5,610 nt of DNA from Gammaproteobacteria bacterium (GTDB lineage Bacteria; Pseudomonadota; Gammaproteobacteria; Eutrophobiales; Eutrophobiaceae): the NCBI GenBank assembly GCA_009843675.1, contig VYCZ01000335.1:1-5610 (forward strand), written 5' to 3'. This document shows positions 1-5,564 of this stretch, piece by piece; positions within the stretch are counted from its first letter, which is position 1; each line of letters starts with the position of its first letter. A model generated the notes under the pieces. It did no database searches, was not told the DNA's origin, and was given only the letters and a program-made list of their open reading frames with translations. A program made the translations under genes and the position numbers.

Positions 1-1119
1 GCTGATATAGATAACATTGGCGTATTGATTATCGACGATGACCAGTCCCGCCAAAACCGGCCCTGCTGCAATACCGATACCCTGCAGGAAAGGCAACAGA
101 ACAACAATACGGCCGTCCCGATCAAAACTGGCTATCCAGCCGTTCTGGAACGGGATAACGAAACTGTAAAAGAAATTGTAGACGCATAGTGCCACCAGGT
201 AGGTTGTGGCTGCCGGATGCCGGCCAATAGTGAAAATGGCGATGAATAAACACACATAACCGAATGAGATGGGCACGATGCGTTTCATCCTGCCGGCCAG
301 CCACGCGGGAACCAGGGCGCCGGCAAAACTGAACAGCAGGGAGACAGACAGGGTTATCGCGATAAAGTCCGTGGCAAACCCTTCGGCATCCCCAAGCCGT
401 TCCATGAACGACCAGATGCTGTTCATGGATGCAAAGAATAATCCGACCGCAAGCAAGCCATACAGGATAGTACGGTCCGTCACGGCAGACGGTTTACTCA
501 ACTGCTTGTCGTTGCGGGTGTTTCCCGTTAAAGGATTTGAGCGCGGTATGGCGTGGTAGCAAATCACAGGTAAAAGAGCCACCAACCCGGTCATGATGAA
601 AACCGGCGCCGCGCCCCATGTCATCCACAGCCAGGTCGCGCCATTCAGGCACAGCGCGCCGACAAATACCTGCAGCGCCATGGCATAGGCGAACTCCCGG
701 TCCGGATTCACGGACGCACTGATGGTGGCATACATGAATGCAACCATCGTTCCCGCGCCCAGTCCGGCCATATAACGATATGCCAGGAACGTTTCAAAAC
801 TTTCGACCATACCACAAAGCAGGTTGGGAATGACAGTCAACAGCACGGCGAAAGGGAAAACCCGGCGCCAATAGCAGCGGTGTATCCAGTAGCGGGCGCT
901 GAACGCGGCAATGGTGTTCGCCGTCATGTCCGCAGATAACAACATGCCTGTCTGTCTGCTGCTAAACCCAAATGTTTCGGTAAAAATACCCGCCAGGATG
1001 GGCAATAAATAGTAGATTGCGAGACTGGTCGCAAAAATCAGGTAAGTCAGCCAACGCGTCGCAGTCGCGCTGACATCAACAGGTTCCGTGTCGCAATAGT
1101 CTTCGGGGAGAAAGATCAA
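1..1119 (-). CDS. MFS transporter, C-terminus cut off by the window edge
   Basis: The minus-strand frame from 1119 to 1 is open for 373 codons and has no stop before the window edge; only the end of the last membrane helices is missing, since the family is usually about 400-430 residues. The protein is very hydrophobic, with helices at roughly 24-46, 57-75, 87-104, 112-134, 144-160, 172-188, then a polar central loop (about 189-217) and a second half at 218-236, 251-270, 282-297, 305-322 and 340-362. This is the 6+6 layout of the major facilitator superfamily. RYMAGLGAG (115-123) matches the family's R-x3-G-x-G-x-G helix-4 motif, and basic loops follow helix 2 (R76...WRR84-86) and helix 8 (GRMKR). 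The start is TTG: an in-frame TGA lies at 1134-1132, GGAGG lies 6 nt upstream, and the next in-frame ATG would delete helix 1. It is last in the operon, 37 nt after the oxygenase. It probably imports or exports the pathway substrate at the inner membrane; the substrate is unknown. Confidence 0.88.
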   Translation of the reverse strand, partial: MIFLPEDYCDTEPVDVSATATRWLTYLIFATSLAIYYLLPILAGIFTETFGFSSRQTGMLLSADMTANTIAAFSARYWIHRCYWRRVFPFAVLLTVIPNLLCGMVESFETFLAYRYMAGLGAGTMVAFMYATISASVNPDREFAYAMALQVFVGALCLNGATWLWMTWGAAPVFIMTGLVALLPVICYHAIPRSNPLTGNTRNDKQLSKPSAVTDRTILYGLLAVGLFFASMNSIWSFMERLGDAEGFATDFIAITLSVSLLFSFAGALVPAWLAGRMKRIVPISFGYVCLFIAIFTIGRHPAATTYLVALCVYNFFYSFVIPFQNGWIASFDRDGRIVVLLPFLQGIGIAAGPVLAGLVIVDNQYANVIYIS

Positions 1120-1156: not shown

Positions 1157-2269
1157 CTACGCCGGCTCGCTTAATTTATCCAGATACCACCGGGTGAATT
1201 CACAATTCATTACTTCCTGTTCAGAATAGGGCCCGGGTTGATAGTGAGAAGACAAGATCCCTGCCTGGTTATTTTCCGTGATAACCGCATCCTGTTTTAA
1301 CGTGACATCCCATACCCAGGACACGCGCTCCGGTACATAATCGACCCCTTCCCGGGCATCTGCATCCACCAGCCATATGGCCTCCACGTCCGTGACCAGT
1401 TCGGAAATCGGGGTAAACCGCAATATTACCGCATGGTCATTGGATGCGAGCAGGTAGTTCAGATAATTGAACGCTACATAAGTCACACCCCCGTCATACT
1501 CCCTGAACTTCCCCATCAAAGTCGAAACCGGCCGGCCATCCTGGCTTTCGGTCAAAAAACCTTCCTTGATCGGCATCCGGACCATCCCTGCGCCATGATC
1601 GAACTCACCCTCCTGGCAGGGATGCCCTAATGCCTCAACCTGTTTTTTCCATGCGTTGAGTTCCACCGCATAGTCCAGGCACGCCGCTTCGGGTCCTGTG
1701 CCCACACCCGCACCGGCGGCCAGTAATTTTAATTCCGAATGCACGGAACAGTATTCCGGGTGAGCCGGGATGCAGTGATAACATTCAATAAAATTCTCCA
1801 CTACCAGTTTCCAGTTGGCGCGGGTCGGCAGTTCCAGCCGCCGTGCAATTTTTGCGTTCTCTATACCGTGAAAGGACAGGTAGTTACGGCAATCCCTGAT
1901 CATCTCATCAAGACCGGCAGGCTCGCCCGCCAACGACACAAAAATCAGACCGTCAAGCACCTTGATACGGCAGGCGTGCAGGCCGTAGTCCGGACATACC
2001 CTCGACCCCCGGTGACGGCAGACATTGTAGTGGGCATGGATATTGCCGTCCCTGCCGCGTACGATAATGATTTCTTCACCGCAGATCCTGAACAGGAAAT
2101 AATCCCCGGCGGCAGGAATCCTCGAAACATGGCCGGCCAGGTGCCATAACCGGTCCAGGACTCTTTCGCGATCAAGCGAAAACACATCCGGGTCGCAGTA
2201 AAAGGGCTGCTGCAGCGTGTGGCCGGCTACGTGGCCGCCGACCAGGTCCTGTATGTTTACTCCCGGCAT
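1157..2269 (-). CDS. GbcA/CntA-like Rieske oxygenase alpha subunit with internal deletion in the Rieske domain
   Basis: Numbering is from the ATG at 2269 (370 residues). The N-terminus (FY-x-DP-x-VF, W-x-LAGH, IP-x-x-GDYF) matches ring-hydroxylating/N-demethylating oxygenase alpha subunits, close in style to glycine betaine and carnitine monooxygenases. The catalytic domain looks complete: NWKLVVENF, then bridging acid E162, His165 and His170 (ECYHCIPAHP), and Asp327 in KQDAVITENNQ as the third iron ligand. The C-terminal S-x-x-Y-x-PGP-x-S-x-x-E segment is also typical. The oddity is the Rieske domain: Cys84-x-His86 is followed by RGSRVC and then directly by PDYGLH, a segment that in relatives comes after the CPYH motif. 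About 40-45 residues, including the second Cys-x-x-His pair, are missing without a frameshift. Full-length relatives of about 410-420 residues fit this gap. The protein may be inactive. An upstream in-frame ATG at 2299 or 2329 would add residues encoded by the repeat element and is less likely. It would need a separate reductase, which is not in the window. Confidence 0.85.
   Translation of the reverse strand: MPGVNIQDLVGGHVAGHTLQQPFYCDPDVFSLDRERVLDRLWHLAGHVSRIPAAGDYFLFRICGEEIIIVRGRDGNIHAHYNVCRHRGSRVCPDYGLHACRIKVLDGLIFVSLAGEPAGLDEMIRDCRNYLSFHGIENAKIARRLELPTRANWKLVVENFIECYHCIPAHPEYCSVHSELKLLAAGAGVGTGPEAACLDYAVELNAWKKQVEALGHPCQEGEFDHGAGMVRMPIKEGFLTESQDGRPVSTLMGKFREYDGGVTYVAFNYLNYLLASNDHAVILRFTPISELVTDVEAIWLVDADAREGVDYVPERVSWVWDVTLKQDAVITENNQAGILSSHYQPGPYSEQEVMNCEFTRWYLDKLSEPA
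1994..2020 (-). other. Truncated Rieske [2Fe-2S] motif and deletion junction
   Basis: These codons encode Cys84, His86 and the run up to Cys92 of the oxygenase. In intact relatives the C-x-H pair is followed about 16-20 residues later by C-x-x-H, then a tryptophan/LDG region, and then the YGLH...GLIFV segment. Here YGLH starts only nine residues after His86. The junction therefore lies at or next to Cys92-Pro93 (about 1996-1991). The remaining Cys92 and His98 do not have the spacing of a normal second ligand pair. Confidence 0.7.
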
Positions 2270-2273
2270 GCAG

Positions 2274-2305
2274 GTACCCTTTCCAGTTAATATTGACATG
2301 TTCAG
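2274..2305 (+). repeat. Left 32-bp terminal inverted repeat
   Basis: It starts GTACCCTTTCC and ends GACATGTTCAG on the plus strand. Its reverse complement is found base for base at 2505-2536. Pairing stops at both sides (2273 G against 2537 G; 2306 A against 2504 G), which defines the repeat limits. On the minus strand it carries an ATG (2299) and the GGAAAGGG used by the oxygenase gene. Confidence 0.9.
2277..2284 (-). promoter_or_regulatory. Shine-Dalgarno-like GGAAAGGG inside the left terminal repeat, used by the oxygenase gene
   Basis: Read on the minus strand, GGAAAGGG lies seven bases (TACCTGC) before the ATG at 2269. It is part of the element's terminal repeat, so the oxygenase appears to be translated from a ribosome-binding site brought by the element. 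It supports the 2269 start over the two upstream ATGs at 2299 and 2329. Confidence 0.5.
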
Positions 2306-2400
2306 AGCCACACAGCAGCGCCAAGACAAGGCGCAGCCCGCCGGGAATGGCGAGTCCTTGCCAAGGGCTGCAACGCCGTATTGGCGTTGCTGTGTGGCTC
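2305..2400. repeat. Competing stem: 2305-2322 pairs with 2383-2400
   Basis: The 18-nt segment beginning GAGCCACACAGCA is complementary to 2383-2400 at 17 of 18 positions. It encloses the left inner arm, so this fold cannot coexist with full pairing between the two 52-nt arms. Inside it, GCAACGCC (2370-2377) and GGCGTTGC (2383-2390) form a perfect 8-bp hairpin with a 5-nt loop. Further hairpins are 2404-2410/2425-2431 (7 bp) and 2430-2435/2439-2444 (6 bp, 3-nt loop). No T-run follows any of them on either strand, so a classic intrinsic terminator is not supported. Confidence 0.6.
2327..2378 (+). repeat. Inner inverted arm, left copy (52 nt)
   Basis: It pairs without gaps with 2431-2482. By manual alignment 44 of 52 positions agree, including a perfect 23-nt core (2343-2365 against 2444-2466), an 8-nt outer block (CAAGGCGC) and a 9-nt inner block (GCAACGCCG). 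Confidence 0.8.
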
Positions 2401-2430
2401 CCTGCGGGCGGGCCGGGAAGCGGTCGCCCG

Positions 2431-2482
2431 CGGCGTTGCGCCGCTTGGCAAGGACTCGCCATTCCCCGCACGGCGCGCCTTG
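2431..2482 (-). repeat. Inner inverted arm, right copy (52 nt)
   Basis: Reverse-complement partner of 2327-2378, separated from it by a 52-nt spacer (2379-2430). The mismatches cluster in two short blocks flanking the 23-nt core. Confidence 0.8.
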
Positions 2483-2504
2483 CGCTCAACCGCTTCCCGA
2501 CCCG

Positions 2505-2536
2505 CTGAACATGTCAATATTAACTGGAAAGGGTAC
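2505..2536 (-). repeat. Right 32-bp terminal inverted repeat
   Basis: Exact reverse complement of 2274-2305. Its outer edge (GTAC, 2533-2536) is separated from the TAA stop of the aminotransferase by only the four bases 2537-2540. Confidence 0.9.
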
Positions 2537-2540
2537 GAGT

Positions 2541-3926: not shown

Positions 3927-5564
3927 TTACCTTTGATTTGCATTGCATGGCGCAGCTTGATCGGCGTCGGGTTTCACCACATCGCCAGCCGTTTGCTTCA
4001 GCCTGCGTTTATCGGGTTTGTTGTTGGGCAGCAGCGGTAATGATGTCTCTATCACCACGTGCTTCGGGATCTTGTAATTGGCGAGTTGCTGCCGGCAATG
4101 ATCCAGCAGGATTTGTTCTGCGGCGGTTTGTCCCGGCGCCAGGGTCACGAAAGCATGGCCGACCTCGCCGTAAACCGGATCGGGCACGCCGACGACACAG
4201 GCAAGGTTAACCGCCGGATGAGCTTCGAGCGCCTGTTCAATCTCCTTCGGGTATACGTTATAACCGCCCGACTTGTACATATCGGATAAACGGCCGACCA
4301 ATATGATATTGCCGTCGTCGCGTTCAACGGCCACGTCTTTCGTGTGCAGCCACCCCTCATCATCTATGGCTTGCCCGGTGGCTTCGGGCAGACGCCAGTA
4401 CTCTTTCATGATAAACGGACCGCGAATAAGAATTTCACCGGGTTCGCCTTTGCGCACTTCCTCACCGCGCTCATCGACCAGGCGAAATTCACAATCATCC
4501 AGCGGCTTGCCGACACTCTCCGCCAGCAGGTCAACATCATTGGTCGAGGGGATCGCCGTTACCGCGCCGGCAGCTTCGGTCAGGGCATACATAGTGGTAA
4601 CGGCAGGACAGATTTCCTGTATGAGCCGCTCCAGCAGGGGTTTCGATGCAGTCCCTCCACTGCAGGAGATTTCCTTGATCGAAGACAGATCCGTGGTGGA
4701 AAAATCCGGATGCTCCAGCACCTTCTGCAGCATGACGGGCACCCCGCCCCAAACGCTGATACGTTTCTCTTCAATCGTCCGGAGCACTGTTTCAGGGTCG
4801 AATTTTTCCAGGTAATAGCCCGTGCCCCCGGTAACCAGGCAGTACACCGAACATGCGATGATGCCGGCAATGTGATTGATGGGATACGGGTTAATCATCC
4901 TGACGGGGCCGGCTGAACGAAGCGACATCTGTACATGCGCATGACGGATGGCGCCGTAGTGATGTAAGACGGCCCCTTTCGGTTTACCCGTCGTCCCCGA
5001 GGTATATACAAGAAAGGCCGCATCCATACTTGTAACGTGACTTTGTGCCTCGGCAAGAACGTCATCGCCAATTTTGTCACTGTTCAGAAGAAAATCGTTA
5101 TACGTAGAGGCAGGCGCGCGGACAGACTCGTTGCCGAGCACGATGACGCGTTCGATACTCAGGACCCGGTCCCTGAGATCCAGTATCTCTTCCAGGTATT
5201 GACGATCGTCGAAACGGCCCCTGGTAAAAACGATGGACGGTTCTGAATCGGCAATTACATGCTCCAGTTCAGTGCGGGTGTAACGCGGGTTGAGTCCTAC
5301 CCAGATCCCGCCTATTGCCGTTGTCGCCAGCAATATGATGAAGTAATCGGGATGCGGCGGTGAGAGGGTCGCCACCCGGTCCCTTTTTTTGATACCAAGC
5401 GCCAGCAACCCTTTGGCGCAATTCTCCACGCGCCCAAGCAGGTCTGTATAGGATTGCATCTCGTTCCCGATCCCGACGGCCTCCTGCGCAGGCGTCTTTT
5501 GCGCATGCTGATACAGGTAATCAAAAATGCGCTTGCCCTGGAACTCCGCCGGATTGAATTTCAT
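3927..5564 (-). CDS. Acyl-CoA synthetase (AMP-forming, class I adenylate-forming enzyme)
   Basis: A 545-residue cytoplasmic enzyme that activates a carboxylic acid with ATP to an acyl-adenylate and then to the CoA thioester. The motif series is complete: the P-loop-like A3 motif YTSGTTGKPKG (187-197); SCSGGTASKP (300-309); A5 motif YALTE (326-330); GEILIRGP (376-383); A7 motif GWLHTKD with Asp410 binding the ribose; hinge/A8 region GRLSDMYKSGGYNVYPKEIE (424-443) with Arg425; and the A10 lysine Lys516 in PNNKPDKRRL. In A7, the usual TGD is TKD, which leaves the catalytic Asp in place. It resembles FadD/CaiC-like ligases, but chain length or substrate cannot be told. It is first of the four genes in the window. 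The start at 5564 has a weak GGGA eight bases upstream; the ATG at 5578 is out of frame. Confidence 0.93.
   Translation of the reverse strand: MKFNPAEFQGKRIFDYLYQHAQKTPAQEAVGIGNEMQSYTDLLGRVENCAKGLLALGIKKRDRVATLSPPHPDYFIILLATTAIGGIWVGLNPRYTRTELEHVIADSEPSIVFTRGRFDDRQYLEEILDLRDRVLSIERVIVLGNESVRAPASTYNDFLLNSDKIGDDVLAEAQSHVTSMDAAFLVYTSGTTGKPKGAVLHHYGAIRHAHVQMSLRSAGPVRMINPYPINHIAGIIACSVYCLVTGGTGYYLEKFDPETVLRTIEEKRISVWGGVPVMLQKVLEHPDFSTTDLSSIKEISCSGGTASKPLLERLIQEICPAVTTMYALTEAAGAVTAIPSTNDVDLLAESVGKPLDDCEFRLVDERGEEVRKGEPGEILIRGPFIMKEYWRLPEATGQAIDDEGWLHTKDVAVERDDGNIILVGRLSDMYKSGGYNVYPKEIEQALEAHPAVNLACVVGVPDPVYGEVGHAFVTLAPGQTAAEQILLDHCRQQLANYKIPKHVVIETSLPLLPNNKPDKRRLKQTAGDVVKPDADQAAPCNANQR
3930..3934 (-). 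promoter_or_regulatory. Ribosome-binding site of the aminotransferase, overlapping the end of the ligase gene
   Basis: AAAGG on the minus strand lies in the last codons of the CoA ligase, directly before its TAA, and nine bases upstream of the aminotransferase ATG (3920). A ribosome terminating on the ligase would be positioned on this site, so the two proteins are probably co-translated. Confidence 0.45.

What the first reader, a model, noticed from the sequence alone, without database searches (positions are those of the whole stretch)
1976..2020. Rieske oxygenase lacking the second half of its [2Fe-2S] motif
The C-x-H pair (Cys84, His86) is present and the catalytic iron triad (His165, His170, Asp327) plus bridging Glu162 are intact. 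The C-x-x-H half and its surroundings, about 40-45 residues, are absent, and the frame continues cleanly into the YGLH...GLIFV segment. A clean in-frame loss of one iron-sulfur ligand pair with everything else conserved is unusual. It could be a recent inactivating deletion, an assembly collapse, or a protein that has lost or changed its electron-entry site. The TGT-CCG at the junction resembles the codons expected for the missing Cys-Pro, so microhomology-mediated deletion is possible.
Basis: partly seen in the sequence, partly recalled or inferred. Interest (0 to 1): 0.75.

Follow-up and report, generated by a model that had tools for sequence, protein, structure and literature searches.

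The report
Rieske oxygenase with cluster loop excised
A bacterial iron-dependent oxygenase gene here lacks the loop that carries its iron-sulfur electron relay while its catalytic iron site is intact, and two related gene groups have lost the same loop separately, so these shortened enzymes likely work with electrons supplied by another protein.

Summary
The gene (window 1157-2269, minus strand, 370 aa) keeps C84-x-H86 but lacks C-x-x-H; against its nearest relatives exactly 111 bp (37 codons) are missing at 1987/1988, in frame. The catalytic triad, bridging Glu162 and the Cys pair beside the iron are intact.

The surprise is recurrence. In the same subfamily two other ortholog groups have lost the cluster loop (49 residues): a C258 group in three genomes under purifying selection (dN/dS 0.14-0.19) and a C374 group. 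A shared origin of the losses is rejected (AU tests), and each group sits beside a full-length relative 88-95% identical outside the loop. All keep the bridging Glu. By contrast, a separate family that lost its Rieske ligands by substitution has Asn there in 109 of 109 such listed hits.

I read these as catalytic-iron-only oxygenases that likely take electrons in trans, as NdmC does. Whether the window's own copy, seen in one genome, is active or decaying is unresolved. No partner was found.

The parts
1157..2269 (-). Oxygenase gene, 370 aa, Rieske cluster loop incomplete
   Evidence: ORF; PF00848 full match, PF00355 partial; nearest full-length relatives 414 and 403 aa
1987..1988 (-). Junction where 111 bp (37 codons, with C-x-x-H) present in relatives are missing
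   Evidence: blastn and alignment against L026 and L027
2012..2020 (-). Remaining C84-x-H86 half of the Rieske motif
   Evidence: sequence; aligned ligand columns
1760..1786 (-). Bridging Glu162, Cys163, His165, Cys166, His170 of the mononuclear iron site
   Evidence: sequence
1289..1291 (-). Asp327, third ligand of the mononuclear iron
   Evidence: aligned column
2272..2539 (.). Inverted-repeat, MITE-like insert between the aminotransferase and the oxygenase, absent from L026 and L027
2541..3920 (-). Class III aminotransferase, upstream gene, intact
3927..5564 (-). AMP-binding acyl-CoA ligase-like gene, intact
1..1119 (-). MFS transporter, downstream, cut by the contig end

Best explanation
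The gene encodes an Stc2-like (quaternary-ammonium-type) Rieske oxygenase that lacks 37 residues of its [2Fe-2S] cluster-binding loop, most likely through an in-frame deletion, and the shortened protein is predicted to keep its fold and mononuclear iron site and would likely depend on a Rieske cluster carried by another subunit or protein. Shown: the exact gap, the intact catalytic motif and bridging Glu, at least three separate losses of this loop in one subfamily, and purifying selection within the shortened C258 group. Predicted: the fold. Inferred: that electrons cross to the retained bridging Glu from a partner's cluster. In the related enzyme CntA the cluster serves the iron of the neighbouring subunit, not its own, so a cluster-less subunit placed beside a full-length one could still be fed. 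Untested: the partner, the activity, and whether this particular copy is still in use.
Against: The window's deletion is seen in one genome only. Its junction keeps a stub of the old loop that models poorly (pLDDT 58 and 72 for model residues 81-90 and 91-100), unlike the C258 type (88 and 98). No partner gene was identified: of seven Rieske-domain ORFs I translated, none looks like a Rieske-reductase fusion by eye; I picked them from a list that the tool had cut. The window's genome shows only one full-length member of the subfamily, C350, itself cut by a contig end. Retention of Glu162 could be structural. The window branch has 9 nonsynonymous and 8 synonymous changes, weak evidence of constraint (P = 0.027), and they cannot be split into before and after the deletion. 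The dN/dS argument for the C258 group assumes one shared loss, which the tree neither supports nor rejects.
Confidence: 0.45

Rival explanations
1. The window's copy is a recently disabled gene: the in-frame deletion removed electron entry, the protein is made but inactive, and it is on the way out.
For: Only this genome carries it; nearest relatives at 87-95% identity are full length. Half of the ligand set and a disordered stub are left. A mobile-element-like insert sits next to the start codon. dN/dS to L026 is 0.356, higher than for the intact pair.
Against: No stop or frameshift; iron site intact; 8 of 17 changes on its branch are synonymous (P = 0.027). Two further ortholog groups show loss of the same loop, one kept under purifying selection.
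Confidence: 0.33
2. The short forms use hydrogen peroxide or another iron-only chemistry instead of Rieske electrons.
For: CntA can run a peroxide shunt without NADH and reductase (PMC10952381, passages). The Cys pair described there as keeping the iron reduced is retained.
Against: The bridging Glu, whose described role is cross-subunit electron transfer, is kept in the short forms, whereas the substitution-type family without Rieske ligands has Asn there in 109 of 109 listed hits.
Confidence: 0.15
3. The gap is an assembly error in a fragmented metagenome-assembled genome.
For: Assembly of 466 contigs, 77% complete; reads not available.
Against: No repeat or shared base at the junction, exact codon phase, and loop losses in the C258 group of three genomes.
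Confidence: 0.07

Closest known systems
Stachydrine demethylase Stc2 (PDB 3VCA, 4QUP) and glycine betaine monooxygenase GbcA
   Same: Closest by sequence and fold: catalytic triad, bridging Glu; 355 residues of the window model superpose on 3VCA at 2.2 A.
   Different: No C-x-x-H and so no complete Rieske ligand set; GbcA model score 269.6 against a cut-off of 670 (the intact relative P0002 also falls short).
NdmC of the caffeine-degrading NdmCDE complex (Pseudomonas putida CBB5)
   Same: A non-heme iron oxygenase without a Rieske cluster, thought to be fed by the extra Rieske cluster on NdmD (PMC4408171, passages).
   Different: [quoted passage not shown] Here only the cluster loop is gone, the rest of the domain stays (predicted), and no such reductase was found.
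Carnitine monooxygenase CntA
   Same: Group V relative; cross-subunit electron transfer, Cys pair at the iron, peroxide shunt (PMC7948474, PMC10952381, passages).

Membership tests
Rieske oxygenase, group V (Stc2/GbcA/CntA-like) | Four Rieske ligands C-x-H and C-x-x-H | tested here: not met
   Ligand columns Cys, His, gap, gap
Rieske oxygenase, group V (Stc2/GbcA/CntA-like) | Mononuclear iron triad His-His-Asp | tested here: met
   His165, His170, Asp327
Rieske oxygenase, group V (Stc2/GbcA/CntA-like) | Bridging carboxylate before the first His | tested here: met
   Glu162
Rieske oxygenase, group V (Stc2/GbcA/CntA-like) | Cys-x-x-Cys pair next to the iron (some group V members) | tested here: met
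   ECYHC in the window; feature from PMC10952381 passages
Rieske oxygenase, group V (Stc2/GbcA/CntA-like) | Overall fold of the alpha subunit | tested here: met
   [not shown]
GbcA equivalog (NF058607) | Score above the curated cut-off of 670 bits | tested here: not met
   269.6 bits; intact relative P0002 330.4
NdmC-type oxygenase | Catalytic iron domain present, Rieske cluster absent | tested here: met
   PF00848 full and ligand set incomplete in the window; PF00848 alone in P0121 and P0142
NdmC-type oxygenase | Partner reductase carrying an extra Rieske domain (NdmD) | tested here: inconclusive
   Seven Rieske-domain ORFs translated and judged by eye, none a reductase fusion; the hit list was cut
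NdmC-type oxygenase | Glutathione-S-transferase-like NdmE | not tested
   no search made

The most novel reading that the evidence does not exclude
Bacteria of this lineage repeatedly turn Rieske oxygenases into cluster-less catalytic subunits by cutting out the cluster-binding loop; these subunits then join full-length oxygenases or Rieske ferredoxins and draw electrons through the preserved bridging glutamate, so that the redox module and the catalytic module of one enzyme family are being unbundled.
Probability: 0.35. Interest if true: 0.8.

Novelty: new variant of a known kind. Interest (0 to 1): 0.6.

Why it matters
The Rieske cluster is treated as a defining feature of these oxygenases. 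At least three separate in-frame losses of its binding loop, one held under purifying selection in three genomes, would show that the cluster can be dropped while the catalyst is kept. Because each short form has a closely related full-length counterpart, they are natural pairs for asking whether an oxygenase can be driven across a subunit boundary by another subunit's cluster, which has so far been inferred largely from structures and mutants.

Tried and rejected
Microhomology or repeat-mediated deletion: rejected, no shared base at the breakpoints. The junction Cys-Pro as a remnant of the missing C-P-Y-H: rejected, L026 and L027 have Cys-Leu there and the Pro is a substitution. One loss shared by all short forms: rejected by AU tests and by full-length sisters. 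The held-together test for C374 plus P0142 against P0149 did not finish, so whether those two share one event is open; the C258 group is one side of a branch but with support 0. The tree needs 5 changes at the fewest, starred branches force 3. A generally deletion-prone genome: not supported within oxygenase genes; other gene families were not checked. A Rieske-reductase fusion as NdmD-like donor: not seen among seven translated ORFs, judged by eye; absence not shown. DNA of full-length P0149 was not found in 369 genomes of the class, so the C374 and C258 breakpoints were compared at protein level only. In 53 genomes of the order the C258 type was found in G000, G001 and G003 only (E <= 1e-60). 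Paper searches showed me no report of excised loops; searches returned no paper, and all cover open-licence PMC text only. Of the 2025 review PMC12445004 I saw six passages, none about cluster-less members. A first motif count (122 of 137) used a loose pattern that wrongly passed the window's own gene, and the 122 includes the reference row; the count to use is 121 of 137.

Full report
What is there. The window is contig C248 of a fragmented genome assembly (2.6 Mb, 466 contigs, 77% complete). It carries, all on the minus strand, an acyl-CoA ligase-like gene, a class III aminotransferase, the oxygenase of the finding and an MFS transporter. The oxygenase reads from an ATG at 2267-2269 to the stop at 1157-1159, 370 residues. 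My protein calls used the 369 residues after the Met.

The gap. L027 and L028 also have the extra stretch. The loss is in codon phase and removes 37 residues including the C-x-x-H pair; C84 and H86 remain. The ends share no base, so the gap cannot be slid either way. Of the 120 best protein hits listed (6930 passed the threshold), 118 carry the four-ligand motif; the two others are the window's own protein and a 284-aa fragment.

The same loop is lost elsewhere. A search for the oxygenase domain in the seven genomes of the genus gave 137 hits. All were translated and aligned: 121 keep all four Rieske ligands, 6 are cut by contig ends, and 10 are non-canonical. Nine of the ten show the complete His-His-Asp triad; the tenth (G002 C732) is cut before the Asp. 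Five of the ten are deletion forms: the window; G000 contig C374; and orthologues on G000 C258, G003 C12 and G001 C42. The C258 orthologues lie in conserved order beside an O-methyltransferase, a dehydrogenase with a DAP_DH_C domain and a Meth_synt_2 protein. The other five belong to a different, substitution-type family (below). The protein database adds P0121 and P0122 (C258 type; P0121 stands for 67 sequences) and P0142 (C374 type; 20 sequences), and P0131 and P0133, C258-type proteins that look frame-broken towards the C-terminus.

Independence. In a quick tree built without the loop columns, the window pairs with full-length P0002 (SH-aLRT 98), the C258 group sits with full-length P0123 (98), and C374 and P0142 sit with full-length P0149 (100). 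Holding all short forms together is rejected (AU p = 2e-59), as are the three pairings of groups (1e-6, 6e-5, 0.002, with three long-branched rows left out). Identity outside the loop to the full-length neighbour is 94.5% (window/P0002), 94.0% (C374 and P0142 to P0149) and 88.5-91.3% (four of the five C258-group rows to P0123). So there are at least three losses.

Not random. In 202 listed homologues from two searches, internal gaps of 25 or more columns occur at the cluster loop (37 or 49 residues, in six proteins) and otherwise once, a 32-column gap in the frame-broken end of P0131; gaps of 10-24 columns occur in P0088, P0133, P0193 and P0194. If a deletion of such a length fell anywhere, it would take out the C-x-x-H with probability 0.09-0.13; for the two losses not chosen in advance the product is 0.016, for all three 0.0015 (a rough, partly post hoc figure). 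In 174 ortholog-like pairs (108 of 137 genes) the only gaps of 10 or more residues involve the window.

Selection. In the C258 group dN/dS is 0.143, 0.185 and 0.188 at dS 0.19-0.37, against 0.186 for the intact pair L026/L027; the window against L026 gives 0.356. On the window branch I count 9 nonsynonymous and 8 synonymous changes, on the L026 branch 4 and 5, with 4 unpolarised and the divergent C-terminus left out. A share of 8 or more of 17 synonymous has probability 0.027 under neutrality. The C258 group is therefore kept as a protein after losing its cluster, if the three share one loss; for the window the case is weak.

Mechanism. In CntA the cluster and iron of one subunit are 44 A apart, those of neighbours 12.2 A, and none of the bridging-Glu mutants made there was active (PMC7948474, passages). 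The cluster thus serves the neighbour. The deletion forms keep the bridging Glu. In contrast, the search with a substitution-type protein listed 120 hits (133 passed the threshold): 109 lack at least one Rieske ligand and all 109 carry Asn at the bridging place; the 11 with four ligands have Glu (10) or Gly (1). In the genus survey none of the 121 intact genes has Asn there (63 Glu, 56 Asp, 2 gaps). I infer that the bridging residue is released when electron entry by a Rieske cluster is abandoned, and that its retention in the deletion forms points to electrons still arriving that way from a partner. This is inference: the 109 are one family and may trace to one change, Glu may be kept for structure, and the window's loss may be too young to tell. 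NdmC is the known precedent for an oxygenase without its own cluster (PMC4408171, passages). I did not find an NdmD-like reductase; of seven Rieske-domain ORFs I translated, three look like ordinary oxygenases and four like small ferredoxins, chosen from a list that the tool had cut. A peroxide shunt, known for CntA (PMC10952381, passages), remains a rival.

Verdict. The shortened enzyme descends from Stc2/GbcA-like Rieske oxygenases but fails their defining ligand set, so I file it as a variant that resembles NdmC in how it would have to work.

Noticed in passing
L124 (G006:C124:54702), L085 (G003:C74), L126 (G006:C4:33235), L138 and L139 (G002): A separate oxygenase family lost Rieske ligands by substitution (mostly C-P-Y-D-G and x-x-Y-H-G-W) and has Asn for the bridging Asp/Glu in all 109 ligand-poor hits of 120 listed; the iron triad is kept in nearly all. 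It may deserve its own study.
   Followed up: partly
window 2272-2539: A 268-bp inverted-repeat, MITE-like insert (32-nt perfect inverted repeats at its ends) lies between the aminotransferase stop and the oxygenase start; similar DNA gives 79 matches in G003, 67 in G006 and none in G004.
   Followed up: partly
window 2267-2290: The insert's terminal repeat puts GGAAAGGG shortly before the oxygenase ATG, a possible Shine-Dalgarno sequence; L026 and L027 have other letters there.
   Followed up: no
G000-G006: Many ring-hydroxylating oxygenases: 3 to 33 PF00848 hits per genome in this genus.
   Followed up: no
L047:11115-13082, L045:1857-3872: FAD/NAD-binding oxidoreductase-like proteins with an RRDF twin-arginine-like start lie near two of the oxygenase loci, the intact orthologue of the window's gene and C374.
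   Followed up: no
L026 oxygenase gene, C-terminus: The intact G003 orthologue ends in a tail (CGRSDCDFGNR) unlike the relatives printed beside it.
   Followed up: no
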